The position numbers and the translations under genes are program-made. 64,000 bases of DNA, from assembly GCF_019649055.1 (NCBI RefSeq), contig NW_026570258.1:62001-126000 (forward strand), read 5' to 3'. Below are positions 7,576 to 30,225 of this stretch, piece by piece (position 1 is the stretch's first letter; each line of letters opens with the position of its first letter). The DNA is from Paramacrobiotus metropolitanus. Taxonomy: Eukaryota; Tardigrada; Eutardigrada; Parachela; Macrobiotidae. The notes under the pieces were generated by a model, which ran no database searches, had not been told where the DNA came from, and saw only the letters and a program-made list of their open reading frames with translations.

Positions 7576-7722
7576 AGTAGTATGCAGCAAGGGTTATTGG
7601 CAAATAATGGCGGCGAATGGAAACAGTATACAGTGCTGGAAGATACGTCTCCTGAAAGGAAGCCGTACGACGTACGAAGGGAAAGGGCTCCCGAATGGAA
7701 GCGGTAGTGTTTGAGCCATGTT
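7576..7722 (+). repeat. Polinton left terminal inverted repeat
   Basis: A 147-nt repeat pairs with 30278-30228 plus 28237-28144 (the right TIR, split by pogo). I count 6 mismatches, about 96% identity. Homology ends at a poly-T run at 7721-7733. Confidence 0.95.
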
Positions 7723-7887
7723 TTTTTTTTTTAATAAATGATTTGTTTTATGTAGTTCGTCTATGGTGTATGACTAATGAGGTCAGTAGCTAGATTAACT
7801 GAATATTCTTCGCAAAAAAACTTCGACTCTGTAGCCCGGAAAATCAGTTAAAAAACGCAAAACCACAAATCAAAAACAAAACTTAAT

Positions 7888-13122: not shown

Positions 13123-16100
13123 ATGGCTGATAACAGTCTACCGTATAACATTGAAGATTTCACACGCATCGAGTGTACCGGTGAAAAATTCTCCCATAAA
13201 TACCGACTGCATTTCAAATGCTTTTCTGTAAAAGTTTCTGAATTAGAAAAAGTGCCGTTTTCGGAAGTACCAGTTGTAATAACGCTTATTTTGGAGCATA
13301 TATTAGACACTCTTTTGGAAGACGTGGGACCAGATGAAATGGTAAGAATGCGACTTGATTCTGGATCTCTGAATCGACCAATATGGACGCCACCTATTGC
13401 ACGGTCGCAGCTAACGGTAGCACGATGGATGGCAGAGGTTGCGCGCGTACTGAATTCGTACGAAGAATTTGTTATCGACGATTCCTTCGAAATTTCATTG
13501 CAATACACCAACATTCCAAAAGGTAGCTGCAACCGAGACGTGCCGCAGCTTCTACGCCGAAGGTTGGAAAAAATGAAATCAGTGGTTGTTATTAAAAATA
13601 CGGATAAAATCTGCCTGGCCCGTGCCCTTGTTGTTGGAAAAGCGCATGCCGACGGAAACAAAAGCTTGTACCGGAAGCTTATACGTGGTAAAAGATTGCA
13701 GACCAAGGAAGCCCAGTTTCTCATCACCCGAGCGGGATTTAAAGAACAGGAATTTAACCTTCGGCACCTTCATAAATTCCAAGAAATTCTTCCTCAGTAT
13801 CAGATCATCGTGGTCAGTGTGGATCATGCAAACCTCATAGTGTTCAGCGGAAAAGTTCAACCCAAGCAAATCATTTTGCTGCATCACGATCATCACTTTG
13901 ACGTGTTAAAATCTTTAGCAGCCTTTTTTAGAAAAAAGTATTGGTGCTACGCGTGTAATAAGGGTTATTCGGAACGCGCTGATCATCGCTGTTCCAATAT
14001 GTGCAAGTGCTGTTTGAGGTCATCTTGTCCGTCTGATCCATGTTCTATGGTGCACTGCAACGACTGCAACCGTGCCTTTTTCGGACCGGATTGCTACGCT
14101 CACCATAAGATTGGACCAATGAAAGGGCGGCCAAAACGAAGGAGCATTTGCAGCTTGATCCAAATCTGTAAAGATTGTTTACGGATTGTCTCAATGAAGC
14201 GAAGGAAAAACGGTAACACTCATCAGTGTGGTGAGATTTTCTGCAAGACGTGTAAAGTGCATGCTCTACCCGACTCACATCACTGCTTTATGAGACCACA
14301 TCAAGTCAATGCGGAAGAACTGGAGCTGAACGAAAACGCCAGCTTTTTATACTTCGACTTCGAGACTTATGTCGGAGAGAACAACGATTTAGTTCCTAAT
14401 TTGGCGGTAAATTATTTGTTTTTTTAAAATTACTATAGGCTTGAGATCGTCCGGTGTTGTTGCAGGTGGTACAGGATGATGACGGTAACGAATGGGTGTT
14501 TCCGGCGGAAGACGCACCTTTGGGCGGTGATGTGACTGATGCATTATGTACCTTCTTGTTCAACGAAGAGCACAGAGATCACTTCATCATTGCCCATAAT
14601 TTTAAAGTTAGTAAAATAGCATGTACTCAAATTTCGCGTTTTAATTGTCACATTTTTCTTTCAGTCGTTCGATGGCTATTTCATACTCAACTGGCTACTA
14701 AAAAATGGAGTGGTTCCAAAAGTCATTCTCAATGGTGGCAAAATTCTACAGCTGGATGTACCTTTGCTGAATATACGTTTCCGGGACAGCATTAATTACA
14801 ATCCTCAGAGCCTCGCAAAATGGCCGGCAACTTTTGGGTTACCAGACATCAGCAAAGGGACTTTCCCACATCGCTTCAACCGCAAAGAAAACTGGGATCA
14901 AGTTGTTCCCTTTCCGTCGATGGATGAGTACGGTTATCAAGGAATGAATACCAAGTCCAAAGACTCATTCCGAGAATGGTATGAAAAAGAAAAAATGGAG
15001 AAGAACAACATTTTTGATTTCCGTCAAGAATTCGTACAGTACTGCAAGATGGACGTTACTGTTTTACGGTTATGTTGCCAGCAGTTTAGAAAACTGTTTC
15101 AAGGAATAAGCAAAGGGCTGTGCCCCTTCGTCTCGTCCTTAACAATTGCCGGTTTGTGCAACAAGTACTGGCGCACATTCATGCTGAAACCAGAACAGAT
15201 TGGACTGTTACCACACGGTTTAAACGCAAGAAATCGCCACCAGTCAGTAAAGGCCAAGAAATGGCTGTCCTGGATGGAAGAGGACGGAAATTGTGAGATC
15301 CAATCGGTCATCAACGGTTCCGAGCACAACATTGGACCATACCATGTCGACGGTTACAGAGATGATATTCACATGGTTTATGAATTTTACGGCTGCAGGT
15401 TTCATGGCTGCCCAAAATGCGTCGCCCCAACAACCCTGCACCCTTTCCGTGACATACCAATGTCCGAAATTCATAAAGAGACGCTCGATCGCGAGGAGTA
15501 CATTCGAGGACAAGGATACAATCTGACTTGCATTTGGGAGCATGAGTTTGATGAAGAACTGAAATCAAATCCTGAAATGAAAGCTTTGTCTCCCGCCTGC
15601 AGTTCATGGACCGATTGGACCCGCGCAACGCTTTCTATGGTGGTCGAACGAATGCGGTTAAACTTCTCCACAAAGTAGACGGTGACGAACAAATCCGTTA
15701 TTACGATGTCAACAGCGAGTACCCGTTCGTCAACAAAAACAAGCGGTATCCTGTTGGTCATCCCATTATCATAACTAAGAATTTCCTCGATATTCGAAAC
15801 TACTTTGGAGTGGTGGTGTGTGAAATGCTTCCACCTGGGAATCTGGCCTATCCGGTTTTACCTTACCGCTGTGGCGGCAAACTGACATTCCTTTGTGCCG
15901 AACGTGCATGGAGAAACATCTTAACACCAAATGCGAACATGCGGATTGTGAACGTGCCATTACTGGTACCTGGTGCACGCCGGAAATTTTGAAAGCGCTT
16001 GACTGTGGATATGGCGTAGTCAAAATCTTTGAAGTCTGGCACTTTGACAAGCATGAAGACCGACTGTTCGAAGGTTATATTAATCAGTTCCTTAAAATCA

Positions 16101-17129
16101 AAACGGAGTCCAGTGGATGGCCCGCAGAAATTCAGACGGAAGCGCAGAAACAAAAGTACATTGCGGATTTTAAAGAACACGAAAACGTTGATTTGGACTA
16201 TGAAAAAATAAATTCGAATCCAGGTTTAAGGGCACTAGCCAAGCTGTGTTTGAACAGGTAAAAAACCTTTATTGATATTTTTTTAATAATTATAGATTCT
16301 ACTTTTTTTTTTGCAGTTTTTGGGGCCGCCTGGGAATGCAGGACAACAAATTGAACACCATGTATATCAGTGAACCTGAAAAGTTTTACAGTATGCTATT
16401 GTCGGGAAAGCACCACGTGAATTCTTGGGATTTATTCACGGAAGAAATTGTTCAAATTACGTACACAACCGAACCCGGATTTGTCGACCGTAATCCTAAT
16501 ACGAACGTCATTCTTGCAGCGTAAGTGCTCTACGTTGATGAATAATAACCATATATCGTGGCTCAGATAAATATTTCAGATTTACTACCTGCTGGGCGCG
16601 ACTACATTTACTGAAGTTTATGGAGATGGTTGAAGGTCGACTGCTGTATTTTGATACCGGTTGGTTACAAAGGTTTTTCATGCTAGTTTGCTTTTTTTTT
16701 TTACGGTTGTTTTTTTTTGCAGACTCAATATTTTTTGTGACTCGTCCGGGAGCTGTTGATCCTCCTACCGGAATTTTTCTCGGTGATTTAACAAACGAAT
16801 TGAAGCCAGGACAATACATAACACAGTTTGTCAGTCTGGGAGCCAAAACCTATGCCTACGTTACCAACGATGGGGCCAGCGTTGTCAAAGTTAAAGGTTT
16901 CACCATAAACGGACGCACTAGCGAGCAGATCAACTATACAACGATGCTGGACATGCTGGAAAACCGCAACGTAGTCGATGTACAGTATCCTGATATTCTT
17001 CAAAGGGTCAAATCGAGTTTGAGCATTCGTAACGCAAGTGCAGTGAAACGATTTCAAGTAACTTATGATAAACGTCGTGTTATTGATGAACAGTTTAATA
17101 CAGTACCATTTGGTTACAAGTTGGTTTAA
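13123..17129 (+). CDS. polB: Protein-primed family B DNA polymerase (pPolB), intron-containing
   Basis: Replicates the element from protein-primed ends. Predicted exons: 13123-14406, 14466-14606, 14665-16257, 16317-16520, 16580-16659, 16723-17129. Residues ~275-400 form a Cys/His-rich zinc-binding region. Exo I is FDFET (D412, E414), Exo II spans the second intron (AHNF then FDGYF), and Exo III is YCKMDVTVL. Motif A is DVNSEYPF. Motif B (FWGRLGM) and motif C (FDTD then SIFF) are each split by an intron. About 1200 residues fits Polinton pPolB. The third exon has two frame breaks, near 15575-15590 and near 15885, so this copy would not make full-length enzyme as written. Its stop overlaps the convergent TBP-like gene by 4 bp. 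Confidence 0.93.
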
Positions 17130-17656
17130 ACCAGTGATTTATTAAATTCATCAAGCATTATCTGAATTTGTTGAACGGCTGCGCACAATTGCTCCGTTGT
17201 TTTTAAACCGAGAAAATTGCATTTACCAGAGGAAAATAACACCGCTCGACCAGTGCTCAATTTAATCGCTAAACCACTAAACAACTCAGGCGTATATTCT
17301 AAACTGAAAAAAGCACTGAATTTTTCAATGTGCACGCGCTGTGAGAAAGCATGGTTCCCAATGACATTCACAATTCGGTAATCGGTAACGGTATAAAAAA
17401 TTCCTATATCCGAAAGAAGATTTGCAAAATAAGTTACCAATTCTTGGGCTTCCGTTTCGGTCCGCGCTCCATTAACAGTTATTTTACCGTTTCGATATAA
17501 CTGGCAGTGTGCTTTGAATGGTAACAGGCGGCGTACCAGCAAACCCGAGAATGTCTCAGGAATATATTGAGCCATTGGTAAAAGCTTCTCAATTTTCCGA
17601 AGGTCCAGGGTAGTGTTTAAATCCGCAACGGCAACTACATTGGTGATTCTGGGCAT
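17126..17656 (-). CDS. TATA-box-binding-protein-like (TBP-like) protein
   Basis: A 176-residue protein made of two tandem TBP-fold repeats, residues ~4-85 and ~93-172, about the size of the eukaryotic TBP core. Repeat 1 has ITNVVAVADL and ETFSGLLVRRLLP followed by RNGKITVNGA. Repeat 2 has YRIVNVIG, YTPELFSGLAIK and VLFSSGKCNFLG. These match the TBP pattern of F-x-G-L/V, P and SGK-x-x-x-x-G. The DNA-inserting Phe positions are kept as F36, F126 and F141, while the fourth is L53/Y54. The family binds TATA DNA and nucleates transcription; here it could direct host RNA polymerase II to element promoters. It overlaps the upstream RNase H-like ORF by 68 nt in another frame. I regard the TBP assignment as strong and the function as inference. 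Confidence 0.8.
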   Translation of the reverse strand: MPRITNVVAVADLNTTLDLRKIEKLLPMAQYIPETFSGLLVRRLLPFKAHCQLYRNGKITVNGARTETEAQELVTYFANLLSDIGIFYTVTDYRIVNVIGNHAFSQRVHIEKFSAFFSLEYTPELFSGLAIKLSTGRAVLFSSGKCNFLGLKTTEQLCAAVQQIQIMLDEFNKSLV

Positions 17657-18092
17657 CGCAATGATACCACAACGCGAAACGTACGGCTTTACGGAGTGTA
17701 GAAACGGGTAGTGATGTCAACTTATGAAACGGTGGGCAGCCAAAGGTTTCCAGGTTTTTTACTTCCGGTACAAATTGTTCCAGCAACCGGCACTTTTCTT
17801 GCCCTTTTGCAAGGAATCGTATTCTGCTAGGACGTCCAATTCTTTTAAATATGTCTTCAACGGCGCAACTCACTTGGTTGCAACGGTAATCTCCTTCGGT
17901 ATACCACAACAGACCGTGTGAATGGCGAGCTTGTCGTGTGAGGTCGAATTTGTATTGGCTGGCACAACGCGGTAACGTAAAGGTATATAAATTCTGTTCC
18001 GATTTTTCCGGACAGTAAAATGCCAGTTGTTTAATATACTTTTTACCGTTGATGACAAACCAATCTGCGTCAAGAATGCAGGGCACTGCCAT
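17589..18092 (-). CDS. RNase H-like fold candidate, unknown function
   Basis: Starts at ATG 18092 with MAVPCILDADWFVINGKKY. The layout (N-terminal ILDADWF with a following K-x-L-A strand, central HGLLWYTEG, RIRFLAKGQEK, and C-terminal ETFGCPPFHKL) resembles an uncharacterised RNase H-like family that I recall from invertebrate mobile elements. That resemblance is from memory and only moderate. The stop lies inside the TBP-like gene in another frame, so the two may be a broken fusion or a coupled pair. It is divergent from the PC4-like gene across cluster C. Confidence 0.45.
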   Translation of the reverse strand: MAVPCILDADWFVINGKKYIKQLAFYCPEKSEQNLYTFTLPRCASQYKFDLTRQARHSHGLLWYTEGDYRCNQVSCAVEDIFKRIGRPSRIRFLAKGQEKCRLLEQFVPEVKNLETFGCPPFHKLTSLPVSTLRKAVRFALWYHCDAQNHQCSCRCGFKHYPGPSEN

Positions 18093-18545
18093 TTTTTTCT
18101 CAAATATAGAGAAAATGTTGCAAAAAAAAAAGAATTTCTAAACGGTGACCTTTCGAGTATTGTAATTTATATAGAATCGAACTGAACTGGTTGCAACCGT
18201 GCAAGATGATTGTAATCGTGCAGAGTTACGATTGTGTAACCGACCAGAATTACTGTAATCGTACACCATTATAGTGCTGTAACCGAATACGGTGATTATC
18301 ACCGAACAGGATTATAACCTTACAAAAGTGACTGTAATCGTGTACGATCACAATTGTGGACTAAGCTGTGGTGTACTGCACGTTTAGATCGTTGTAATCG
18401 AGTGGGATTACTGTAACCGTGGAAGTAAACGGTGTGTCATAAGTTGCGGTCGTAAATGAATTGTATATAAACGGTACCGCTCACACTAAGACCGTGCAGA
18501 GTTTAGTTTTGTTGAATTTTGTTTCATCTAGATATTGTATAAACC
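18093..18545. promoter_or_regulatory. Bidirectional promoter with phased repeat boxes (cluster C)
   Basis: GTAATCG or GTAACCG occurs repeatedly: 18212-18218, 18236-18242, 18255-18261, 18279-18285, 18334-18340, 18394-18400 and 18413-18419, most in the same orientation. A perfect 15-bp palindrome CGGTGATTATCACCG lies at 18290-18304. A TGTATATAAACGG TATA box at 18462-18474 precedes ATG 18546. A TTTATATAG element at 18165-18173 could serve the minus-strand gene. It is the densest of four related clusters. Confidence 0.65.
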
Positions 18546-19502
18546 ATGGAGTTTCTTGACTTGTTGGCACAAAAACGACCGCAAGGAGGATTTACAAAGC
18601 GAAAACGCCCAGGAGCCGAAGACGATACCAACCCGGAAGCAAAGAAAGCTAAAGGTGGCGCACTAATAGAAGGTACGCCAACGCATCCACGCTTTGCTTT
18701 TACACAGAACGGCAAGCCGGTTTATCGACTGGGCAACGACAAGTTCGTGTATGTTGGTACGAATACGGACGCAAAGAAAAGTACGATTCGCGTTGTTTTC
18801 GGGGAATGGAAAGAACAGCCTGATAACTCCTGGAAAGCGACTTGGGGGAAAAACATTGTGCTCTCCAAGAAAGGATTTCTCCGTTTGGCGGCTCTTATGC
18901 TGACTGGAAAATCCGACATGGACGAGACTGCCCGCGCCAGTTCAGCAGAAACAGGGAGGTTGACACCATTGTACTTACTAGATGGAAGTATGTATTTTGG
19001 TTGGAGTCGTTTCAGCAACGCAAACGTGGCTACGATTCGTCGATTCAATGTGAAAGCTGGCGACATGGTCCCGACCCGTTACGGTATTTCGTTCGGTGAG
19101 CGCTGTTATGACGGACTGAAGGAACTGCTGAAGGATCTGCAGTTGATTAAAGACATTGCCAAGATTCAGAAGGAAAGTGGCACTGAGGATCCGATTTTGG
19201 AAGGTTTAGCGTACACTGAACTGGATGAAAACATAGCTGATGCCTTGGTTCCACTGGTAAAACTGATGGACGACGGGACTGGACCGAAGAATTACACCGA
19301 AAATTACCGCCCATCGGATGCTGAATGGAACGGAGCTAAAGAACGTCTATTGGAACTGCGCATTGTGCATGGTATCTTGTTTGGGTTAGAAAAGCTGGGA
19401 ATTGAGCAAGCTCTGGAAATGGATGTGGAGTCTTATTTAATGTTGCATGAGAATCGTATTCGTGGAAATGTTGGGCGCACTATTGCAGCGGATAATTGTT
19501 GA
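18546..19502 (+). CDS. PC4/p15-like coactivator with two PC4-type domains
   Basis: 318 residues. The N-terminus carries basic nuclear-localisation-like clusters (FTKRKRPG, EAKKAKG). Residues ~58-118 fit a PC4 domain: VYRLGNDKFVYV, then IRVVFGEWKE, then GKNIVLSKKGFLRLA, i.e. beta strands followed by the G-x-x-L-x-x-x helix entry. Residues ~147-200 repeat the theme with VATIRRFNVK, then PTRYGISFGERCYDGLKELL. PC4 binds single-stranded or melted DNA and promotes RNA polymerase II transcription; some viruses use such proteins as DNA-binding factors. The remaining ~110 residues are helical and unrecognised. A consensus TATA box lies about 75 bp upstream. It converges on the adenain gene. Confidence 0.7.
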   Translation: MEFLDLLAQKRPQGGFTKRKRPGAEDDTNPEAKKAKGGALIEGTPTHPRFAFTQNGKPVYRLGNDKFVYVGTNTDAKKSTIRVVFGEWKEQPDNSWKATWGKNIVLSKKGFLRLAALMLTGKSDMDETARASSAETGRLTPLYLLDGSMYFGWSRFSNANVATIRRFNVKAGDMVPTRYGISFGERCYDGLKELLKDLQLIKDIAKIQKESGTEDPILEGLAYTELDENIADALVPLVKLMDDGTGPKNYTENYRPSDAEWNGAKERLLELRIVHGILFGLEKLGIEQALEMDVESYLMLHENRIRGNVGRTIAADNC

Positions 19503-19611: not shown

Positions 19612-20064
19612 TTATGTCGAAAAAGAATTGACATACTGACACACCATTTTATCGTTGCTTAGTCGGCTATCCGTAAACAAATGCACAATATTTGTGTATG
19701 ATTCACCACCACAGCGTCGTAAAATAAAAAACAAACAGTACTGTCCACATACAGTACTGAATTCAGACTGAAACTGTTCATTTTGTAGAGTTATTTCATT
19801 GACAGCCGCCAGTGACGCGAAATGCTGAGAGTAGCGTTCCAAAGTTCTCCCGTATGAATCAAACATTTCCATTTTTCCAGCTTGTTCCTGGTACAGCGCG
19901 ATCCAGTGCTCACCTTCCTGGTCGGCGGGGTCTGTATTTACCACACACGCTCCCGGGAAAGGTGCCAGAGTGGTTGGAACTTGATCACTCGCGTAGACCC
20001 CACGAAATACCGCTGTGGTCTGGGGATTCCCGTGGAGGGCCGAGGTAATTTCTTGTGTGTTCAT
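19612..20064 (-). CDS. Adenain-like (C5) virion maturation protease
   Basis: 150 residues with the adenain order of catalytic groups: H53 in EHWIAL, D69 in MFDSYG, Q99 and C106 in a Q-x6-CGQYC arrangement. The length is slightly below adenovirus protease. It presumably cleaves capsid and core precursors. Its start overlaps the MCP stop by 4 nt, typical of a compact late gene block. No frame break seen. Confidence 0.9.
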   Translation of the reverse strand: MNTQEITSALHGNPQTTAVFRGVYASDQVPTTLAPFPGACVVNTDPADQEGEHWIALYQEQAGKMEMFDSYGRTLERYSQHFASLAAVNEITLQNEQFQSEFSTVCGQYCLFFILRRCGGESYTNIVHLFTDSRLSNDKMVCQYVNSFST

Positions 20065-21397
20065 GTTGTAAAGTCAGCAATTAACTGACGGTGCTGATTG
20101 ATTTCAATGATGCTGTCATAGATCAGCATGCACACCATCATAATGGTACTTTTCAGTGGTTTACCAAAGGACACGGACACACTTAGGTTTCCCTGTTTGA
20201 TTAGCGTCAGTGGTCCGCGTCCGGTATGTCCTGGAGTCAGGTCAAAACCGAAAATGGTATAGCCGTCGTTATACTGGGTCCGGTTAAACGGTAAGCCGCC
20301 TTGCAAGCTTGGACGATGTCCCAAAGTGTCCAACAGCCCGTCGTAGCACTCCAGAGACAACTTGCGGTCGAAATCGGCAGTGTACGGTTTCGTAGGGTAA
20401 CTCTGACCGTCCACTTCGACGCTGATTTGTGTAATATTGAAGTGTTGAAAGTTGAAAGGATTTTTCTTTTGCGATCCGTGAAAGTCTTCGCTGTCCACAA
20501 AACCAATAAAGACGACTTTGGGAATTTGGCCAATCTGCAAATTGCTGACCACGGTGCTTTGGGTTCGCTGGGGAATGTCCGACACGCGCATAACCACGCG
20601 TTCGATATGGTACTTGACCGTTTTTTTCAGGAGTTCTCCGGCTACAGCGGTCAGAAAATCCGGAGACGGAATGTATCGGCGAACCGATAGACGTGCGTTA
20701 CGGATAAACGGTTTGAATGTCTTGGTGGTATCCGTGTCCCATACACGTAAGGCAAACTCCGGTCGACTAACCACTAGGCGAATGTTGACGGGTACCCCGG
20801 TGCACAGTGGCTTGCTCTGGTCAAAAAGGTCCGAAAATAGTTTGCCGGAAAGCTGAACGTACTGTCCAGTATTAAATAACGCCGTTCGATTTTTTCACCA
20901 TTGTTCGCGGTTTCACTGTTGAAAGAACCCGGAGAGTCGTAATAGAAACCGGCGGATGTCAGTTGGCTTTGTTGAGCGTCAAGGGAGTGGGACAGCAAAG
21001 ATTCCAGGTAGGCGCGGTACGGATAAAACGTGGCGGCATCCGAGATCAACCGGTTGGCCACCGTCACATGGCATGAAGAGAACATAGAGTGCAGAATGTT
21101 GTTGACCGGTCCCACACCATCTGCCGTTGTAATCAGTTCCCATTCCCCAGTGCTCTTACGGACTTTAATACCCACTTCAAGTTCCAGGATCATGTCCGCT
21201 AAACTGAGTAGTCCGGATGTGCTGGGTGGGATGAAAAAGTTGATGTCGCCGGCCGATCCGTTGTCCGTTAAGATGGTCGTGGGATTGAGCTTTTCGTGCT
21301 CAGTGCGCCACCTATCCGTTAGAGTAGCCGGTAATGCAAACAGCTGGTTCTCTAGTTGCATGGCCGGCTCCGAGTTTTCCATCATCAGCATGGCCAT
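20061..21397 (-). CDS. Major capsid protein (double jelly-roll), one frame break
   Basis: Two minus-strand ORFs, 21397-20774 and 20774-20061, together span about 445 residues, the usual size of Polinton/adintovirus MCP. The N-terminal half has the conserved DINFFIPPSTSGLLSLADM and MFSSCHVTVANRLI region; the C-terminal half contains KVVFIGFVDSEDFHGSQ and GYTIFGFDLTP. The frame changes around 20855-20870, so the copy as written is disrupted. It lies between the adenain and the small basic virion gene. Confidence 0.88.
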
Positions 21398-21399
21398 TT

Positions 21400-21798
21400 T
21401 CAGAAAAAATCGGGGATGCTGGTAGGAGGAATACGTTTAACTCGTACAACTTTACGTCGAATACGTCGTTTCTTGCGGATACCTTCGCCTTCTTGGGAAG
21501 CAAAACGTTTTCCAATGGCTGTTCCCGCACGCGAAGCTACCTCTTTAATAGCCCCGGTCGCCGCTTCTTGCAGGTGAGGAGTAGCCGCTTCCAAAGCGGC
21601 TTTGGCATGCGGTGCAGCCTTCCGTAGTATAGGCTGAGCAAAGGCTGATAGCTTGGCGAAAAGGCTCTTTAAAATTTGCGGGAACCCCGATCCGTTTTGT
21701 AGGGTTCCTCGATACCGGATCAGGGCGCTGCCACCCGTCTGACTGACAAAGACGTTCTCGTATCGCCGGGGATCCGGCACGTACGCCACGAGAGGCAT
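21400..21798 (-). CDS. Small basic virion protein (adenovirus pVI/pX-like role)
   Basis: 132 residues: an Ala-rich amphipathic middle (FAKLSAFAQPILRKAAPHAK) and a very basic C-terminus (IRKKRRIRRKVVRVKR) ending in IPDFF. Such architecture is usual for Polinton/adintovirus minor core or membrane-active proteins encoded next to the MCP. The assignment rests on position and composition. Confidence 0.6.
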   Translation of the reverse strand: MPLVAYVPDPRRYENVFVSQTGGSALIRYRGTLQNGSGFPQILKSLFAKLSAFAQPILRKAAPHAKAALEAATPHLQEAATGAIKEVASRAGTAIGKRFASQEGEGIRKKRRIRRKVVRVKRIPPTSIPDFF

Positions 21799-21799
21799 T

Positions 21800-22770
21800 C
21801 TAGTAGAGTCGTTGTGGTCGGAAATGCAGTTTCACCAGTGACTTTCCCGTTTGGAACTTGGCGTCGTCTCCCAGATCGTTGGCAATGGTCAGTTTTATCG
21901 TTTCGAAATGTTGGCGTAGTACTGGGACGTAATGCGGAATGTCGAATCTGGCCTCGACAATTTGATTGACTTCTCCTCTAATAGGTACGGAGCGTAAAAA
22001 CTGCGCTGCAGTATCGCCAATCAAGCTGTAGTCGGCCACATCACTGTAGACAAACAGGCTTTGATTTCCCAGTAGGGTATTGACCGGTCGCTCCGAAATA
22101 AAGCTGGTAAGTTTTGGATTCGGAGGCTTGGCCAGAAATGACAGGTACTGGATACTGACATTCTTTGTTTCAAAAGGAAATGGACCGACCATACCATTAC
22201 TGTTACTCTCCATCGGTACATCGGGTTTTAATACGCTACGTTCAAACCCCAGCATTTTTTGTAGGACTATCGACGATGGGGGAAAGACAACGGAAACCCG
22301 GTCATTGCCAATGTTTAGTCGGACCCGATGATTGGTGGCGGTCAGCAATTGAACGGTAAAGGCTCTGTCGGCAGTCAAAGCGCTCTTGTCAGGGTGCACC
22401 GTTTCGTCCACCATGTACGATCCAACTTTGGGTACCAATGAATTGATGGTCTTCAATAACAAATCGGCATCTTTATAATTTCCAGGAGGGATGGTAATCT
22501 CGTCGGTATGGACAACTTGGTCCGCCGACTCCAAAAAGTTTGCTTCGTCTTTCTTTAGTCTGAATTCTTTAACGATGTGCACTTCAATCTTCTGCTCCAC
22601 GGGAAGAGTGAAAAGGAATTGAGGTACTGTAGTTCAACCAAGGCCATTTCCCATTTTCCCTTCAGGGTAATGGGGTGTTTCAATTTGGTCGTCCAGTTTG
22701 AAGGAGTGTTGCTCGGGTCCGTCGCCACATCGCTCGGGAGCGTCACGTAGAATGGTGCTCCTTCGTACAT
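21800..22770 (-). CDS. Minor capsid (penton-like, single jelly-roll) protein, one frame break
   Basis: The N-terminal segment starts MYEGAPFYVTLPSDVATD at 22770 and includes NTPSNWTTKLKHPITLKGKW. The main ORF 22600-21800 follows in another frame; the switch is near 22600-22615. Conserved features include EITIPPGNYKDADLL and, near the end, QIVEARFDIPHYVPVL. About 320 residues is the usual penton size. Its start overlaps the integrase stop by 28 nt. Confidence 0.82.
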
Positions 22771-23804
22771 GATGATGCCTTGATCCAGGAATCGTGCTCA
22801 GGTCCGTACCCTAACCACCGAACTAGTGCTCTGTCACCACGGCGTCTAATGATATGGTCGATAGTATATTCCTTCTGTTCCGGACGCGATACTTTGGAGA
22901 GCTCGTGTTCATAAAAGGTTCCTTGAATAGGTTGGTCTTGATAGTCCTTTAGTTGATATACCGGTACGATATGTGAAATGACTTTATTGATGTAGAATAC
23001 TTCCTCCTTAAATCGATACGTATAGCCTTTTTCGACCTTGGTTTTATGCACGGCTATCCGGACGGCATCACCGACCTTAAATCGAGGTGGTCGAACTTCT
23101 CTGGTTGGATACAATTTATTGAATACCGCCAAGGAATTGTTCTGAGTGACATCTATCGGTCGCAATCCATGTGCTCGATGTTTGGAGTGGTTATACGAGT
23201 ACACCAGATCTTGCAGTTTGTCAATGTAACGGGTCGAAACTCGCGCACGAAACAAGCGAAACATTCTTGTTTTGATGGTGCGAATGACGCGTTCAGCCAT
23301 GGCGCATTTGATGTCTTCGTTTTCCGATGTGAAAAAGTGAATCTTCCTGTCCTTCAAGAAGGTCTTGACCGTTGCGTTAACGACTTCGCTGCCTTTATCG
23401 TACTGCAGCTTTTCCGGCTCACCCAATTCTTCAAAAGCCTTGGACAAGGCATTCTTGGTTTCGTTGGCCGTTTTAGACTTCATTGGTTGAATGCTTAGCT
23501 TTTTAGAGAAGCAGTCAATTACAAACAGCAAGTGTTTGTACCCATCATTTTCTTTGGAATATTTTGATAAATCAGCCAGATCAGCTTGGTACTGCTGACG
23601 AAGGTTGGTCACTACGATCCAGTTGCGTGCAAAGCGCCGTCGATTTTCCTTGGTCACAGTGTACGCATCGATCTCCTGCAGAATTTCTTGTGCTTTCCGT
23701 CTGTTGGCTCTGGTCTTTAAACTTCTTCGGAACCTTTCGATGCCTCCAAGACCGCCGGGATTTCGCGGGTCGAGATATCGTTTCATCAGCTTCTCCATTA
23801 TCAT
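22743..23804 (-). CDS. int: Retrovirus-like DDE integrase with C-terminal chromodomain
   Basis: Catalytic residues D75 (QADLADL), D136 (LQYDKGSE) and E171 (AMAERVIRTIK) with 34 residues between the last two. HHCC zinc residues are not evident, as usual in Polintons. The C-terminal EYTIDHIIRRRGDRALVRWL with GPEHDSW is a chromodomain, which could steer integration to marked chromatin. 353 residues with no frame break; one of the intact core genes. The start may be at 23804 or the next ATG 6 nt in. The 6-bp TSD fits this enzyme family. Confidence 0.95.
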   Translation of the reverse strand: MIMEKLMKRYLDPRNPGGLGGIERFRRSLKTRANRRKAQEILQEIDAYTVTKENRRRFARNWIVVTNLRQQYQADLADLSKYSKENDGYKHLLFVIDCFSKKLSIQPMKSKTANETKNALSKAFEELGEPEKLQYDKGSEVVNATVKTFLKDRKIHFFTSENEDIKCAMAERVIRTIKTRMFRLFRARVSTRYIDKLQDLVYSYNHSKHRAHGLRPIDVTQNNSLAVFNKLYPTREVRPPRFKVGDAVRIAVHKTKVEKGYTYRFKEEVFYINKVISHIVPVYQLKDYQDQPIQGTFYEHELSKVSRPEQKEYTIDHIIRRRGDRALVRWLGYGPEHDSWIKASSCTKEHHST

Positions 23805-23876
23805 TACAGCAAGTAGAAACGCAGCTGATCTTAAATACTCGGCATAGCCGTAACACGCTGGGTATTAGACCGGCCA

Positions 23877-24740
23877 TTATGTTAAGGTGATCCACGGCAG
23901 TTTCGATTTTCCGGTTCCTTTCTGAATGGTGCGGAAACGCAGTTTTCTAACGTTGCCTTCGATTTCATCCGCTTTCCTTTTCTTTCCCCGCACTGGTCTC
24001 GAGATGGAGAACAACGGCCGTCGGGGGTATTTATGTGGCTTGGGTTGTTTGTCAGCCTCCTCGTTTTTTCGCTTGCGACCTTTTTGCGGTACGGTTGATG
24101 GAAACAAGCCGATTCGTGCTGTTTTTGCCAGGCGGATATCTTCAGGTTCACCAGGAAAGAACGTTTCCGACCTTTTCGGGCAGTGTTGCAGGAAAAGGGC
24201 AACTCGAGCTTTTTTAATTGACCGCTCGTCTCCGGGTTCGCTCTGCTGGTGATTTCGTTTTGAACCTTTTGTGGGTGTTACCGCAGGAAACAATGCCCGT
24301 CGAGGCGCCTTTCGTGCGGTTTCTTCTTCAAACTCGTCTTGCAAGTTTCTTTTCCGTCCATTCATCGGTACATCCACCGGGACCGAGTACTTCTCGATCG
24401 GAGTTTGTCCCTCTTCTGCCGTTTTTTTCTTTTTTTGAAATGGTACGTTTTTCTGCTTCTCTGTGCTTAGTGGTGGGGGTTGGGACGACACATCCGTTGC
24501 TAGTTCCACTGGATTTTCATCTGGAATGGCTTTCTGTTTCAACGCCAGGAACCTTTCCAGTATACTGCTCAACTGGCTGGCTTTTTCGTACTCGCTTATA
24601 TCGGTTCGGTGAAGCGTTGTAGCCACCAGGGCGTCTAGTGTTATTACGCTTTGTGCTTCCGGTGGTTCTTTATTAATCTGAAGCTGATGGTGCATACGGT
24701 TCTCCATTACTCTTCGCGGAACAATGAAGTATTCATCCAT
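23877..24740 (-). CDS. Basic repeat protein, likely virion core/PY-like
   Basis: I favour the start at 24740 (MDEYFIVPRRVM) because many Polintons encode a gene beginning with a similar (E)Y-hydrophobic-VP segment; an ATG 30 nt upstream is in frame. The first ~95 residues are helical. From about residue 130 the protein consists of roughly 36-residue units, each with a GRKRN/GSKRN/GRKRK/GKKRK basic box followed by an R-x-x-LF-P motif (RRALFP, RVALF, RIGLFP, RRPLF). This looks like a DNA-condensing core protein; the function is inference. Confidence 0.6.
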   Translation of the reverse strand: MDEYFIVPRRVMENRMHHQLQINKEPPEAQSVITLDALVATTLHRTDISEYEKASQLSSILERFLALKQKAIPDENPVELATDVSSQPPPLSTEKQKNVPFQKKKKTAEEGQTPIEKYSVPVDVPMNGRKRNLQDEFEEETARKAPRRALFPAVTPTKGSKRNHQQSEPGDERSIKKARVALFLQHCPKRSETFFPGEPEDIRLAKTARIGLFPSTVPQKGRKRKNEEADKQPKPHKYPRRPLFSISRPVRGKKRKADEIEGNVRKLRFRTIQKGTGKSKLPWITLT

Positions 24741-25059
24741 TTCCAATGAGAGACGTGAGAACACTTGCAATTACTGGTAATATGGCTCCGATGAAGCCTC
24801 CTTGTTGAATAATTTTTCGCTTCTCCTTGAGGGGATACCGTTGTAAAGCAATTAGCTTTAATGCTTTCCGGTGTCGTTTACACTTTTCAGCCTGTGCCGG
24901 TGTTAAGTCGACGGTGTTTTTCACAATATTGACAGCAACTTCTTCGAGGGCTTTCAACTGCGGTTTGGTGAGGTAGCTAACCAACACTTTCCGCTGTTTT
25001 GGTCTCAGCTGTTGCAGCGTAATAATGAATGGTGCTAAAGCTTTCACCCGTTCGGACAT
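24733..25059 (-). CDS. PX-like small virion protein with hydrophobic C-terminus
   Basis: 108 residues: a Lys/Arg-rich helical body (LRPKQRKVLVSYLTKPQL, AEKCKRHRKALKLI) ending with a Gly/hydrophobic segment (GGFIGAILPVIASVLTSLIG). This composition and the GGF-x-LPVI ending are typical of the small Polinton/adintovirus gene often called PX. It overlaps the ATPase stop by 16 nt and the basic repeat gene start by 8 nt. Probably virion-associated. Confidence 0.75.
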   Translation of the reverse strand: MSERVKALAPFIITLQQLRPKQRKVLVSYLTKPQLKALEEVAVNIVKNTVDLTPAQAEKCKRHRKALKLIALQRYPLKEKRKIIQQGGFIGAILPVIASVLTSLIGNG

Positions 25060-25732
25060 TTCGGTAAAGTATTGGTAGCGTTCCGGTTTAGATATATCCG
25101 CATTTGATCATTCGGTAGGACATGAGAACGTATCCTTAAATAGTCCGGGCAAGTAGGTCGTAGATCCAGTACAAGAGGTTGATACGGTTCCGCTGTGACT
25201 TTATTATCCGCATCCACTAAATGTTTCAGTCCAGTCTGTCGTGCCAGCAGTGCGATCTGATTAACATCGCGGACGTTCTTAAATAGTATCAAGTACTGTG
25301 AATTCAACGTGATGTCCCGCATTGACTTTCCTTGCTTATAGAGATTCTGCAGCATCATGATGACTGAAACATTCTTGTGATGAATGCCGCGGGTGAACAA
25401 GTCAGAACATCGAACATCCTTGCACAAATCCGTGGCCAAATCATCAATAATAAGCAGTATATGGTCAACGCTATCGGCAGAGTGCAGCTCTGAAAACAGG
25501 TCATCCAGACCGTGCAAGAACTCGACTTGCGAAACCTCTTTTTGTAAGTCATCGAAACCTTTCTGCCACTGACCGTAGCAGTAGAGTATTCGTGTGGGTC
25601 GCCGATCAAAACTAAAGCACTGTTTTTCAGGAGAGTGAATACAAATTGTGTTTTGCCCGACATTGTTGGCCCGCAAACACACATACCAAAAGGTACGCAA
25701 AAGCGTGGATACTCATTTATTACGCTAAACAT
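25044..25732 (-). CDS. FtsK/HerA-type DNA packaging ATPase, one frame break
   Basis: Walker A is CGPTMSGKTQFV near the N-terminus and Walker B is HILLIIDDLA. Total size about 229 residues matches Polinton packaging ATPases. The Walker A part is in the frame starting 25732, the rest in the frame ending 25044; the switch is near 25610-25640. It pumps genomic DNA into capsids in this family. Confidence 0.9.
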
Positions 25733-25784
25733 TCTTTTTTATGTCATAAAGTACACAGAACATCGGAACAGCTTTAATAAACAT

Positions 25785-26664
25785 TTATGCAAAGAAAAGC
25801 TTAACCTTTTCAAAAATTAGCTGGCGACAAACAGGACATTCTCGCAGTCTTTCCGAACAACCAGTACAACAAACGGCATGACCACACGGAAAAAAACACA
25901 TGCAAACCTTTTTATCCAAACATACACTGCATTCCTTATCTACTTGAGAGTTACCATCCAGTCTCGCCACTGTGATGCGTTCCTTAATCCGGTTTGCCGC
26001 CTCCACCAAGTCTTTCAAGTCAAAATAGAGCCACGCGGTCTTATTACGGAGCAGAGCCTTGATCAAATACGTGTAATGGCATCCAAGTTCTACTGCATGG
26101 GCGGTTAAGAAGTCCCGTCGATCGGTTCGTGGACCAGTCACCCACTTTCTGTGGTCCATATCGTGAAACCTCTGAACATAATATACAAACTCCAGTCCTT
26201 GTTTTTCAATCAGAAATTCACATCGAGGCTCATGAATAGCATGTTCAATCCATGGGTCGTCGTCCGGGGTCCATTTTTCCAGTTTTCGACCACAGCAAAA
26301 CACTGCACTCGATCAGCAACCTCCATGAAATAGAAACCGGCCATTGCCAAGTCTCTTGGCCGCTGCTGGGCGTACACAGGCCACTCCGCAAAGTGCCGAA
26401 CCGATCACGGTAATTTACCATTGCCGGTATATAGACGTCACCGTCCGCTACCATTGCTGCATATGGGCACTCCGGATTATCGCGGCGGTGTTCGAAGATA
26501 GGCTTGTCTCCCATCGCCCAGTCAAAATGCACACAATTGCACGTGACACATTTAACTTCATCACCTTCTCCCGTGTAGATATAACCAGCTTCGGCCAAGG
26601 ACAACGGAGAAATATATGCCAAAGGCCAGTTGCCAAAAGTTCGCAAGCGATCTTCAACATTCAT
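25785..26664 (-). CDS. IAP-like protein: two BIR domains and a RING finger, frame breaks
   Basis: BIR1 (near 26640-26460) shows C-x2-C, then H and C in HRRDNPECPYA. BIR2 (near 26410-26220) contains CFCCGRKLEKWTP and EHAIHEPRCEFL. The C-terminal RING (25890-25790) shows CSVCLDKKVC, PCGHAVCC and CPVCRQL. The BIR-BIR-RING order is that of IAPs, which block caspases and act as E3 ligases; large DNA viruses of invertebrates often carry them to delay host cell death. Breaks near 26395 and 26305 leave the copy disrupted. It is divergent from the small membrane gene at 26724. Confidence 0.85.
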
Positions 26665-26909: not shown

Positions 26910-27254
26910 CATACCTTTTCTGAGGAGAGGTAAGACCATCCAATACGAGTAAACACACTGTTGAAACATCCGTTAAACGCTACTGACACCTGCACCTCCA
27001 CCAATCGATCTTTTATACATGTAACTGTTGTAATCGAAGGCGATTATAAGTAATGATCACTGTACACGGTGACCACAGTTATAAAACAAACAAACAGTAT
27101 GATAACTGAACTCGGTTACAAGTATGATCACTTGCAAGAATTATTGTAACCGAGTACAGTGACAACTGCCGCTACATAAATGTGCAGCATTCAACAAGCC
27201 TTCAGTTGTGTTTTATTTTGCTACAAAAATAATCACATATTTTCTGAATCTGAA
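26910..27254. promoter_or_regulatory. Promoter region of ANP32-like gene (cluster D)
   Basis: Boxes: TTGTAATCGAAGGCGATTAT (inverted repeat 27028-27047), ACACGGTGACCAC (27064-27076), CTCGGTTACAAG (27111-27122), ATTGTAACCGAGTAC (27143-27157). The same motifs as in clusters A-C. Confidence 0.6.
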
Positions 27255-27927
27255 ATGTCTGCAGTTTCTCGCTCGGTCATGGAAGCCGCTTTCCGTAATT
27301 TGTTTGGAAAGCTTAGTGCCAGTACGCCGGAAATGGTTTTCGATGGAAAACGCGTGCCTCCAGCAGTTCTTCCTCTGTTTGTGAAATTTCAAGGCTTAGA
27401 AAAGCTAAGCCTGATTGATTGCGACCTGTGGTCGTTGGAGGGCCTACCGCGTTTGCCATGCCTACGCATCCTCATGTTGGGAGACAACCATATTGATGAC
27501 CTGAGCATCCTGCCTCAGAGCTGCCCCAATTTGGAGAAGCTTTCCATTGTCGGCAACAAAATCGGTCTCCGTGACGAATTAGAGCCACTGACACTCTTAC
27601 CAAAGCTGCGGGCACTGGACGTTGAAGGCAACGAGTTGTGTGAAATTCGCGGACACGACCGCTGGTTGGCTGATAAGTTTCCGAACGTTACACGTTTTTT
27701 AATCACGGCTTACGATGTGGACAGCGAGGATGAGGAGAGTGACGACGATATTTCTTGGTTTCTCAGCGGTGAGCCGACTGTTTATTATTCTTAAATCTGA
27801 CACGAGGGTAATGTATTGGTGGTTCAAAGGTGAAGCCATGGGAGATTCCGATGAGGACGGTTACAACGGAGACGATGATGATTCACACACGGACGCCAGG
27901 GTGCCTGAGGTTATCACGTTGGACTAG
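27255..27927 (+). CDS. ANP32-like leucine-rich acidic protein, Polinton cargo
   Basis: Exon 1 is 27255-27768 and exon 2 is 27830-27927, joined in frame over a 61-nt GT...AG intron; if unspliced, the ORF ends at 27794. Leucine-rich repeats run over residues ~45-130 (LEKLSLIDCDLWSLEGLPRL, LRILMLGDNHIDDLSIL, LEKLSIVGNKIG, LRALDVEGNELCEI), followed by a capping segment (FPNVTRFLITAYD) and an acidic tail (VDSEDEESDDDISW; exon 2 GDSDEDGYNGDDDDSH). This is the ANP32 architecture, though the tail is shorter. ANP32 proteins bind histones and cofactors in the nucleus; a role in chromatin or element expression is inference. A poly(A)-like AATAAA follows near 27982. Confidence 0.7.
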
Positions 27928-28143
27928 TTTTTCTCTGATGGCAGTTCTTTTTTTTTGTGTTTAGACAATGTTATTAACGCTTCAATAAAATAAGACATTT
28001 TAGGATTCCTGCTGTTTTTTTTTAGATTTTTTTCAAACACGTGAATAAAGGCAGTACAGAACAAGCGTGCGGTTTTCTTTTCGTTTACGCATATACAGTA
28101 AACATCTCCACGCCATCTATTAATAGTACAGTACTTATTGTCA
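27928..28143. other. Polinton 3' spacer before the right TIR
   Basis: Contains poly(A)-signal-like AATAAA near 27982 and T-runs. No gene seen. Confidence 0.5.
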
Positions 28144-28239
28144 AACATGGCTCAAACACTACCGCTTCCATTCGGGAGCTCTTTCCCTTCGTACGTCGTA
28201 CGGCTTCCCTTCGGGAGACGTATCTTCCAGCACTGTATA

Positions 28240-30225
28240 CTGTAGCCGCTAGATGAAGTGGCTCCACTGCTAGATCCGGGCGCAGCCTTCCCCTTGTCGG
28301 GCATTGAGCACGGTGCTTACCGCCAACGGGCAGCGCACACGTAAAGTTTACTTTCGTTCATTTTATTTTAGTACAGCACTCTTTTACTTTGGTAAACCGT
28401 TTTCTATCTCACAGGTACCATCACTCTCTAAAATACTATCACTGAATAAACTAATCTCCATTTCAGAATCGCTTTCATCAACTAGATTTTCCTTATCCAT
28501 TTCAGAGCTCTCATAATCATTTTCAGAGCTCTCATAATCATGATCTCGGTCATCATTCTTAAGCACCTGAGCAGCGAAAACGATTTACGGACAAGATCTG
28601 GGGTTACGCTTTGCCATGCACGAGAGATCATATCCAGGAAGTCTTGGCGCCCTGGCTTCTTCAGATATCCCGATTTTGTTACTTCATGATGAGTTGCTCT
28701 CCAAAGCTGATATTCGCTGCGAAAAGAGGCCTTCATTGCTTTGTTAACGCTGACGTCAAGGGCTGATAATCGCCTGTGCGACCAGCAGGCACGAAGATTT
28801 GCTCGACATTTCGTTCTCTAAGTAGGAGCTCCGATGGTTCTTTTTTGTGGACAGGTGCCTGGTCTCGAATTAAAACACGCTCCTGCTTTTCTTCTGGAAA
28901 TGTATACTTTATCCAGTCCAGATCCATCTGCTCCGTCCACCAAGTAGAATAAGAGCTCTCAACAAAAATATTAGGAGGAACTTTCAGCTTGTTCATTATC
29001 CCTTCTGACAGCTTCCCATTCTTTCCCCTTTAGCACCACTACAGCAGGATATTTTCCACCATCCGCACGGATCGTGAGAGACACAGTTATTCCTTCTTTT
29101 CGCCAGGAGGCTGTTTAACAGTAACCTACAAAGCCGTCCACAGTCAGCTTTCCAGAGGAACCCCCCCCGCTGGTTGCCAGGGGCACCCCAAAACCACAAC
29201 AAACCAGATTCATAAAATTAATAAAAATATCAGAGCTCTCATAATTCTCATATCTTTTGTTATAAATGTTTGTTATAAGTTGATTAAAAGCTATAGAATT
29301 ACTTCTTTCACTCCAATGGGAGAAAGTGTTTTCGGTTTCGGCGCTACAGGCGAATCATCGTCTGATCGAAATTGAATACGCGGTCAGCGAAAATTTCATC
29401 CAGAACGATGGAATTGTGTAAGCGGAGAAAATACTCTAGCTCTTCTTCCTGTTTTTTTAAAAAATGGTCAGAGCTCTGATTTATAATGTTAAAAAAATTC
29501 AACTTACCAGATCTTCCTCTGTGAATTCAGACTTGCGAGCATGTCGAGTTGGGACACGATATCGCAGGCATTTTCTCTTTAAAAGCAAGTAAGCCAACAG
29601 TCTGAAGCCTTGAAGGTAGGAGCTCCTTTCGCCTGGGCTAACTCCAGCGCTCTTTTTTTCAGCTCCAGACGTGTCACAATAAGACCCTTCTTCCGCTCGG
29701 CCAGGAGAAATTCGTACAAGGCGTCCTCTATGCCTGAGTGCTCCGGCTTTCGCTTGTGTTTCTGCTTTCGAAGAGGCTCGTTCTTCCTCAACCTGCTGCA
29801 GGTAGACTGGCTGCTTCCAAGAAAACGCAAGAAGATAATTAATTAAAAATCTAGCTGTACCTTTTCCAGCGCGTGAAAGTTCTCCATGGAACTCCGATGT
29901 TATTTGCGTAACTCCGTGCGCTCACATCAGCGGCAGCAAAACCGATCAGAAATGCACGAATCTGTTCCTCTGTATAACCACGCTGCTTTCGGCCCATTAC
30001 GACAAATTAGAGCTCTGATTTAAATGCTATCCACAGCCGAAATGCAATTATTCACTATAAAACCAAGCTCAGGTTCACAATTTTGGTGTAAAAACCCGTT
30101 AAAATGAATTAAAATCAAAAATACAGCAAAAATTCAATTTTTTTATTCAATTCAGCGTATGTATATACGTAGTGCCTTTTCTCGTACACCAAACTCTGTG
30201 GAGCCACTTCATCTAGCGGCTACAG
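28240..30225 (-). mobile_element. pogo-like (Tc1/mariner superfamily) transposon nested in the Polinton TIR
   Basis: 26-bp perfect TIRs begin CTGTAGCCGCTAGATGAAG. TA target duplications lie at 28238-28239 and 30226-30227; the undisturbed left Polinton TIR shows the empty TA site. Length 1986 bp. Confidence 0.92.
28482..29997 (-). pseudogene. pogo-type transposase, broken
   Basis: Order on the minus strand: a psq-like HTH (from ATG 29997; QRGYTEEQIRAFLIGFAA, then YANNIGVPWRTFTRWKR); a CENP-B/Tc5-type HTH (29830-29579; GIEDALYEFLLAERKKG, then LTRLELKKRALELA); and DDE pieces: RVFNFDQTMIRL near 29340-29400, VSLTIRADGGKYPAVVVLKG near 29050-29110, and ERVLIRDQAPVH near 28850-28890. A tail runs to 28482. 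Several frame breaks separate the parts, one close to the third catalytic Asp region, so it is not a working gene as written. Confidence 0.8.

What the first reader, a model, noticed from the sequence alone, without database searches (positions are those of the whole stretch)
17126..17656. A Polinton that carries its own TATA-binding protein
The ORF shows both TBP repeats with the F-x-G and SGK signatures and three of four intercalating Phe positions. TBP-like genes are known in some large DNA viruses (e.g. asfarviruses); I do not recall one in the described Polinton gene set. It could redirect RNA polymerase II to element promoters.
Basis: partly seen in the sequence, partly recalled or inferred. 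Interest (0 to 1): 0.92.

Follow-up and report, generated by a model that had tools for sequence, protein, structure and literature searches.

The report
Polinton transposons carrying their own TBP
A virus-like transposon found in many copies in a water bear's genome carries its own TBP, the protein that helps mark where RNA polymerase II starts, and its capsid-side genes carry an unusual start-like signal, so the transposon may steer the host's transcription machine to itself.

Summary
Confirmed and enlarged. The ORF (17126-17656, MINUS strand, 176 aa, intact) is a real TBP: Pfam TBP E 1.7e-29; AlphaFold2 pLDDT 96.7; 1.2 A from human TBP over 171 residues. It lies in a 20.6-kb Polinton, in a genome that is very likely the tardigrade Paramacrobiotus metropolitanus. 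It is not a one-off: 225 TBP places were found (two are host genes; some are fragments), and 103 of 112 integrase and 138 of 150 ATPase places have a TBP within 15 kb, in at least five gene orders. Relatives occur on unnamed contigs, two of which seem also to hold a related integrase. The family looks to be under purifying selection and shares unusual DNA-contact residues (L114Q, T124N, T215L, yeast numbering). A TFIIB profile finds no Polinton TFIIB, so host TFIIB is the likely partner. In 14 late-strand blocks an 8-mer scan ranks TATTAAAG and TATTTAAG first and second (21 and 15; 1.16 expected each); TATTWAAGR is absent from four blocks whose TBP has other contact residues. This recalls the TATTWAA late promoters of beta/gamma-herpesviruses. 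Many boxes lie in coding sequence, though, and DNA binding and expression are untested.

The parts
7623..7723 (+). left terminal inverted repeat of the Polinton (starts ACAGTATACAG)
   Evidence: no target-site duplication seen (flanks ATGGAA / AGCCGC)
28143..28243 (-). right terminal inverted repeat
   Evidence: 97% complementary to the left one
17126..17656 (-). TATA-binding protein gene, 176 aa, intact
17589..18092 (-). ORF167, RNase H-like DEDD-exonuclease fold; overlaps the TBP start by 68 nt; also next to TBP in the architecture with ATPase at -1.15 kb
18546..19502 (+). ORF318, PC4-like (transcription coactivator p15) protein; this copy is below Pfam's cut-off, relatives pass it
13123..14427 (+). 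PolB upstream piece
   Evidence: no Pfam hit; assigned by position and by homologues lying beside PolB pieces
14710..15678 (+). PolB piece (DNA_pol_B_2)
   Evidence: E 3e-14
15606..15992 (+). PolB piece (DNA_pol_B_2)
   Evidence: E 8e-15
16620..17129 (+). PolB C-terminal piece (no Pfam hit); YFDT / DSIFF motif split by an intron-like stretch (my reading)
19612..20064 (-). adenovirus-type endoprotease (Peptidase_C5)
   Evidence: E 1.6e-5
20061..21397 (-). two adjoining ORFs read as capsid protein pieces (from recall and position; no Pfam hit)
21400..22600 (-). ORF132 and ORF266, late-block genes without Pfam hit
22743..23804 (-). retroviral-type integrase (rve), weak chromodomain
   Evidence: rve E 9e-12
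25044..25732 (-). packaging ATPase (Pox_A32-like, below cut-off; two overlapping ORFs)
25785..26664 (-). BIR + RING (IAP-like) gene in two ORFs
27180..27794 (+). leucine-rich-repeat gene
18464..18471 (+). TATATAAA box, -82 from ORF318
18166..18173 (-). TATATAAA box, -81 from ORF167
25772..25779 (-). TATTAAAG word, -47 from the ATPase ORF, in the gap after the BIR+RING ORF
25278..25285 (-). TATTTAAG word, inside the ATPase frame
25135..25142 (-). TATTTAAG word, -83 from ORF108, inside the ATPase frame
23830..23837 (-). TATTTAAG word, -33 from the integrase, within a short conserved ORF
21543..21550 (-). TATTAAAG word, -153 from the capsid ORF, inside ORF132
21163..21170 (-). TATTAAAG word in the capsid region

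Best explanation
The ORF is a functional, selected, element-encoded TBP. Shown: TBP family and predicted saddle fold; residence in Polintons of several gene orders; low dN/dS; family-specific contact residues; a strand-specific excess of TATTWAAG in the late-gene block; TATA boxes upstream of some early-side genes. Inferred: host TBP/TFIID starts early-side genes from TATA boxes; the Polinton TBP sits on TATTWAAG boxes of the late block, bends the DNA as TBP does, and recruits host TFIIB and host RNA polymerase II, for no Polinton TFIIB was found by profile and no RNA polymerase gene was seen among the 21 ORFs of this element given to Pfam. The PC4-like protein encoded close by may assist. 'Early' and 'late' are my labels for replication-side and capsid-side genes, not measured times.
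Against: No RNA, binding or protein data. 17 of 30 late upstreams lack the word, its distance to the start runs from 33 to 235 nt, and within 138 nt of the start it is 5 of 30 late against 1 of 45 early-side. Many words lie in coding sequence, where late strand and coding strand are the same, and homologous sites in related copies are not independent. At the integrase the word fades while the peptide is kept; at ATPase YLR the Tyr and Leu codons are nearly fixed but Arg is not; at ORF132 nearby Gln and Thr codons are as fixed as those of the word. The 7-mer scan puts CCGGCTA and AGCCGGC above ATTAAAG and ATTTAAG. In the window type E186 is Thr, so one of two TFIIB glutamates is lost. The link of word to TBP type rests on one contrast. 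TATA boxes are only modestly enriched overall: 14 of 78 sense, 10 antisense, shuffles 6.6 +- 2.4.
Confidence: 0.58

Rival explanations
1. The Polinton TBP is a general extra TBP: it supports element promoters of any kind together with or instead of host TBP, and the TATTWAAG excess is coding constraint or a weak TATA variant that host TBP also uses.
For: Many words overlap conserved codons; Polintons with the other TBP type lack the word in the four blocks read yet keep the TBP; the TBP genes of L036-L039 have TATA boxes of their own at -45/-47; only 5 of 30 late upstreams have the word within 138 nt.
Against: One-base variants of the word show no excess in two sets; words lie in several different genes and in gaps; Ala, Ile and Lys codons in the ORF132 word are invariant in 5 copies while nearby Ala codons vary.
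Confidence: 0.25
2. The protein acts on the host: it binds host promoters or titrates TFIIB/TAFs to dampen host transcription while the element is active.
For: E188 kept in 23 of 26 copies; TBP fold predicted intact.
Against: The altered DNA-contact set and the element's own word point to element promoters; host targets were not sought.
Confidence: 0.1
3. A captured passenger gene without function, or a former Polinton gene now used by the tardigrade.
For: Some copies carry stops; the annotated 131-aa protein P0002 looks like a mis-spliced model of one copy.
Against: Near-constant presence in Polintons of several gene orders, low dN/dS, relatives on other contigs.
Confidence: 0.03

Closest known systems
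Cellular TBP / TFIID subunit (yeast, human, the tardigrade's own gene at C4:406165-406662)
   Different: 29% identical to yeast; L114Q, T124N, T215L; other side of the tree of 97 rows (forks 97/73 and 99/77, bootstrap not settled); sits in a transposon
TBPs of nucleocytoplasmic large DNA viruses (e.g. Heterosigma akashiwo virus, mimivirids, asfar-like B263R)
   Same: TBP fold carried by a dsDNA virus; BFVD best E 2.5e-11
   Different: Top five matches 13-20% identical, rmsd 2.8-4.0 A; for viral TBPs one of the two TFIIB glutamates is reported conserved in only about 40%, and a viral TFIIB in almost all such genomes, not in poxviruses (PMC7221094, passages; mapping to yeast E186/E188 is mine); here no TFIIB by profile and E188 mostly kept
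Beta/gamma-herpesvirus TBP mimic (KSHV ORF24) and TATTWAA late promoters
   Same: TATTWAAG fits TATTWAA; [quoted passage not shown] host RNA polymerase II is used there, inferred here
   Different: ORF24 has extra N- and C-terminal domains and five partner proteins; the Polinton protein is a bare 176-aa TBP core; homology to ORF24 was not tested
Polinton/Maverick elements and adintoviruses
   Same: TIR, PolB, rve integrase, protease, ATPase
   Different: TBP as a near-constant gene, plus PC4-like and IAP-like genes; no paper listed in nine library searches reports a TBP in them
Mirusviruses and mirusvirus-related elements of the alga Cymbomonas
   Same: TBP reported in 59% of mirusvirus genomes (PMC10132985, passages) and sporadically in Cymbomonas elements (PMC10675990, passages)
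   Different: HK97-type rather than adeno-type capsid lineage; the Cymbomonas elements lacked PolB, ATPase and double jelly-roll capsid genes; sequences were not compared here

Membership tests
TBP family (Pfam PF00352) | Profile match over the curated cut-off, two repeats | tested here: met
   101.9 bits against 22.9, two stretches
TBP family (Pfam PF00352) | Pseudo-symmetric saddle fold | tested here: met
   [not shown]
TBP family (Pfam PF00352) | Sequence-specific DNA binding and bending, TFIIB recruitment | not testable with these tools
   Needs protein; residues only
Orthologue of cellular TBP | Canonical TATA-contact set (residue roles recalled) incl. four Phe, T124, T215 | tested here: not met
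   F116 Tyr in 21 of 26; T124N 25 of 26; T215L 26 of 26: filed as a divergent viral TBP, not as the orthologue
Viral TBP-TFIIB orthogonal pair (large DNA viruses) | Own TFIIB-like gene | tested here: not met
   PF00382 matches at 3 loci only, on contigs without a TBP place; a TFIIB too divergent for the profile is not excluded
Herpesvirus vTBP late-transcription system | TATTWAA-type late promoters | tested here: inconclusive
   Word enriched on the late strand; promoter use not shown, much of it in coding sequence
Herpesvirus vTBP late-transcription system | ORF24-like multidomain protein with its partner set | tested here: not met
   176-aa TBP core only; partners not searched for: works like it at most, not a member
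Polinton/Maverick | TIRs, PolB, rve integrase, adenovirus-type protease, packaging ATPase | tested here: met
   chromodomain (19.3 of 25.1 bits) and Pox_A32 (16.3 of 22.8 bits) below their cut-offs; protein priming of PolB not tested
Polinton/Maverick | 6-bp target-site duplication (trace of insertion) | tested here: inconclusive
   none seen at these ends: flanks ATGGAA / AGCCGC; age or recombination could remove it
Polinton/Maverick | Double jelly-roll major capsid protein | tested here: inconclusive
   ORFs at 20061-21397 without Pfam hit; not folded

The most novel reading that the evidence does not exclude
Animal Polintons hold a self-contained early/late transcription switch: early-side genes use TATA boxes read by host TBP, and a Polinton TBP with re-tooled contact residues reads a TATTWAAG box on capsid-side genes with host TFIIB and RNA polymerase II. 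TBP and box would co-vary between Polinton lineages. This would parallel, or even share ancestry with, the TATTWAA late system of beta/gamma-herpesviruses.
Probability: 0.38. Interest if true: 0.94.

Novelty: new variant of a known kind. Interest (0 to 1): 0.88.

Why it matters
No TBP in Polintons turned up in the paper searches made. A basal transcription factor as a near-constant gene of a transposon suggests that these elements act on host RNA polymerase II directly. The TATTWAAG word gives a testable account of how a Polinton could separate early from late genes, and bears on the evolution of viral TBPs, known to me from large DNA viruses, mirusviruses and herpesviruses. The many copies with differing contact residues are a natural experiment in TBP specificity.

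Tried and rejected
Reading on the + strand (stops). IMG/VR: no relative by TBP alone, by TBP alignment, by integrase or by capsid ORF; phages: none by TBP. Host co-option: of TBP places lacking an integrase/ATPase match within 15 kb, 20 were fetched (of 40 then known, of 65 in the final census); 18 of the 20 lie among Polinton genes, the other two are the cellular TBP and a divergent TBP-like gene. The remaining 45 were not checked. Alignment of the ORF167-ORF318 gap in 8 copies: nothing conserved stood out apart from TATA-like words. A first k-mer scan of 150-nt upstreams was too noisy to name a motif; TATT[AT]AA was tried in the same call because herpesvirus late promoters were known to me. 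So searches are guided; one search used blocks fetched after the word was fixed, but 3 of its 10 hits had been seen in small fetches; one search tests every word but on the old plus the new blocks. In one search the 7-mer scan ranks CCGGCTA and AGCCGGC above ATTAAAG and ATTTAAG. The word as an integrase promoter was weakened by divergent copies. No clear box stood out for the other TBP type; of its four blocks, L017 and L025 were typed directly, L026 by its C-terminal half, L093 by kinship with L038. Closely related TBP pairs scatter widely in dN/dS: 0.05 to 0.77 over 14 pairs with dS under 0.2.

Rows dropped before counts: 39 of 115 upstreams (copies near-identical to a kept one: L003, L008, L015, L018, L020, L023; and copies of the other TBP type), and 11 of its 45 early-side upstreams are shorter than 250 nt, redundant upstreams (102 to 78, 106 to 71) and all of L001, L002, L010, L013, L024; one search leaves one of the 71 out of its two gene groups, proteins under 140 aa, 14 distant proteins left out of the 55 by hand, and 26 of the 48 loci then held were chosen by hand, 11 of 23 stretches in which the peptide was not found by the search pattern, words present in fewer than 4 of 14 (or 3 of 4) blocks. 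Paper searches: only listed titles and abstract starts were seen (one search listed 20 of 2,990 papers, 15 of 1,175), plus passages found by term in PMC10675990, PMC12220804, PMC8363768, PMC7221094, PMC11071296, PMC11464507, PMC12529657, PMC10132985, PMC7786948 and no occurrence in PMC11071308 and PMC10120064. Genome searches with a candidate cap give lower bounds.

Full report

ELEMENT. Inverted repeats of 101 nt, 97% complementary, at 7623-7723 and 28143-28243 bound 20.6 kb. Inside are PolB pieces (E 3e-14 and 8e-15), an adenovirus-type protease, an rve integrase with a chromodomain match below its cut-off, an A32-type ATPase match below its cut-off, a BIR+RING gene and an LRR gene. The capsid ORFs are named from memory and position. 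No target-site duplication was seen.

HOST. The genome behind the window has 169.8 Mb in 533 contigs. A protein that a source names as Paramacrobiotus metropolitanus (P0002) agrees letter for letter with one copy of this genome, L008, over its first 113 and last 17 of 131 residues, so the species is very likely that tardigrade (taxonomy).

HOW GENERAL. Merged, there are 225 places on 136 contigs: a lower bound for matches, but including two host genes, fragments and copies with stops. The 20 best rows of the 150 have no stop. Of 112 integrase places 103, and of 150 ATPase places 138, have a TBP within 15 kb; 160 of the 225 TBP places have an integrase or ATPase match that near, against 3.1% of the genome. 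Of 20 fetched TBP places without such a match, 18 lie among other Polinton genes; the two exceptions are the cellular TBP (81% to the best TBP query, yeast by its low likeness to the others) and a divergent TBP-like gene (20%). The offsets fall into at least five gene orders, so the TBP has been kept through rearrangement. Outside this genome, 31 and 63 proteins were found (the lists overlap), nearly all without an organism name. Contig lengths of 27,637 and 20,036 recur for a TBP hit and an integrase hit, which makes two TBP-bearing Polintons elsewhere very likely, though the contigs could not be read.

EVOLUTION. In a tree of 97 rows the 26 genome copies and 55 relatives form one side (support 97/73), and yeast, host and Salpingoeca TBP lie in the other (99/77, open); the bootstrap had not settled. 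The four TBP pairs with dS 0.2-1.2 have dN/dS 0.04-0.20; over all 18 usable pairs of 29 ORFs the range is 0.04-0.77, the high value resting on 12 changes. DNA-contact positions (roles recalled) show family signatures in 26 chosen copies: L114Q 26, T124N 25, T215L 26, with N159, F190 and F207 in 26 and F99 in 25; close relatives 53, 55 and 52 of 55 for the three changes. Two types exist: Y116/T122 (21 of 26, all with N213) and F116/I122 (5 of 26, with V or T at 213). A passage in PMC7221094 says that Phe-to-Tyr changes at this kind of position affect TATA binding.

PROMOTERS. Upstream of ORF318, 6 of 7 kept copies have a TATAAA/TATATAA box at -49 to -82. Over all genes the TATA excess is modest (14 of 78 sense, 10 antisense, shuffles 6.6 +- 2.4); within 250 nt TATAWAW stands in 11 of 45 early-side and 2 of 30 late upstreams. 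In the late block the word is TATTWAAG. In the window 6 of its 10 occurrences, both strands counted, lie on the minus strand of the 6.4-kb late block. In 11 blocks (44.9 kb) TATTWAAGR occurs 18 times on the late strand (shuffles 1.1 +- 1.1) and once on the other, with four one-base variants at chance. In seven blocks fetched afterwards it occurs 10 times against 0.57, once on the other strand; 3 of the 10 had been seen before in small fetches. A scan of 8-mers present in at least 4 blocks puts TATTAAAG (21) and TATTTAAG (15) first and second in 14 blocks of the Y116 type (expected 1.16 each); at 7 letters ATTAAAG and ATTTAAG come third and fourth. Four blocks of the F116 type have no TATTWAAGR where 8.7 would be expected. 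Upstreams of late genes have TATTWAAG in 13 of 30, early-side genes in 1 of 45; within 138 nt, 5 of 30 and 1 of 45.

LIMITS OF THE PROMOTER CASE. Many words lie in coding sequence, where late strand equals coding strand and related copies share sites. At the integrase divergent copies lose the word but keep the peptide. At ATPase YLR, Tyr and Leu codons are nearly fixed (TAT 10 and TTA 11 of 12) but Arg varies. At ORF132 the codons GCT ATT AAA are invariant in five copies while neighbouring Ala codons vary, but nearby Gln and Thr codons are just as fixed. So the word is over-represented and strand-bound, but its use as a core promoter is inference.

MECHANISM AND COMPARISON. Most likely the element TBP reads the TATT words and hands over to host TFIIB and RNA polymerase II. 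This is how KSHV makes late genes: ORF24 replaces TBP on TATTWAA promoters, and the K8.1 promoter contains TATTAAAG (PMC12529657, passages). ORF24, however, is a multidomain protein with partners; the Polinton protein is a bare TBP core. It is therefore a divergent member of the TBP family that may work like the herpesvirus system without being shown to belong to it. Mirusviruses also carry a TBP (59% of genomes; PMC10132985, passages). Nine library searches listed no paper on a Polinton TBP; the library lacks most subscription papers, and only the listed titles and abstract starts were seen.

Noticed in passing
18546-19502: PC4-like coactivator gene inside the Polinton; 46 of 66 PC4 matches in the genome lie within 3 kb of a TBP place.
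   Followed up: yes
17589-18092: DEDD-exonuclease/RNase H fold protein overlapping the TBP start; Maelstrom (MAEL) chains are among the lower-ranked matches.
   Followed up: partly
25785-26664: IAP-like BIR+RING gene in two ORFs inside the Polinton.
   Followed up: no
27180-27794: Leucine-rich-repeat gene inside the Polinton near the right terminal repeat, with a TATA box at -100.
   Followed up: no
L024 (G000:C66:349292-349534): A divergent TBP-like gene (20% to the best TBP query) without Polinton matches in the 9.8 kb fetched; perhaps a host TBP-related factor.
   Followed up: partly
L008:1495-2460: In one copy ORF167 and TBP lie in one open frame of 321 aa from the first Met.
   Followed up: no
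L002 (G000:C44:937284-937811): A second Polinton copy with TBP and integrase 100% and ATPase 97% identical to the window copy at protein level: recent movement or duplication.
   Followed up: no
23780-24000: A short conserved ORF (LRLCRxFKI-like) just upstream of the integrase start in window-type copies.
   Followed up: partly
47517-48799 and 61778-63061: Two similar regions with long inverted repeats outside the Polinton, perhaps another mobile element.
   Followed up: no
P0093: A Ramazzottius varieornatus integrase is 51% identical to the window integrase: related elements in another tardigrade; whether they hold a TBP was not tested.
   Followed up: no
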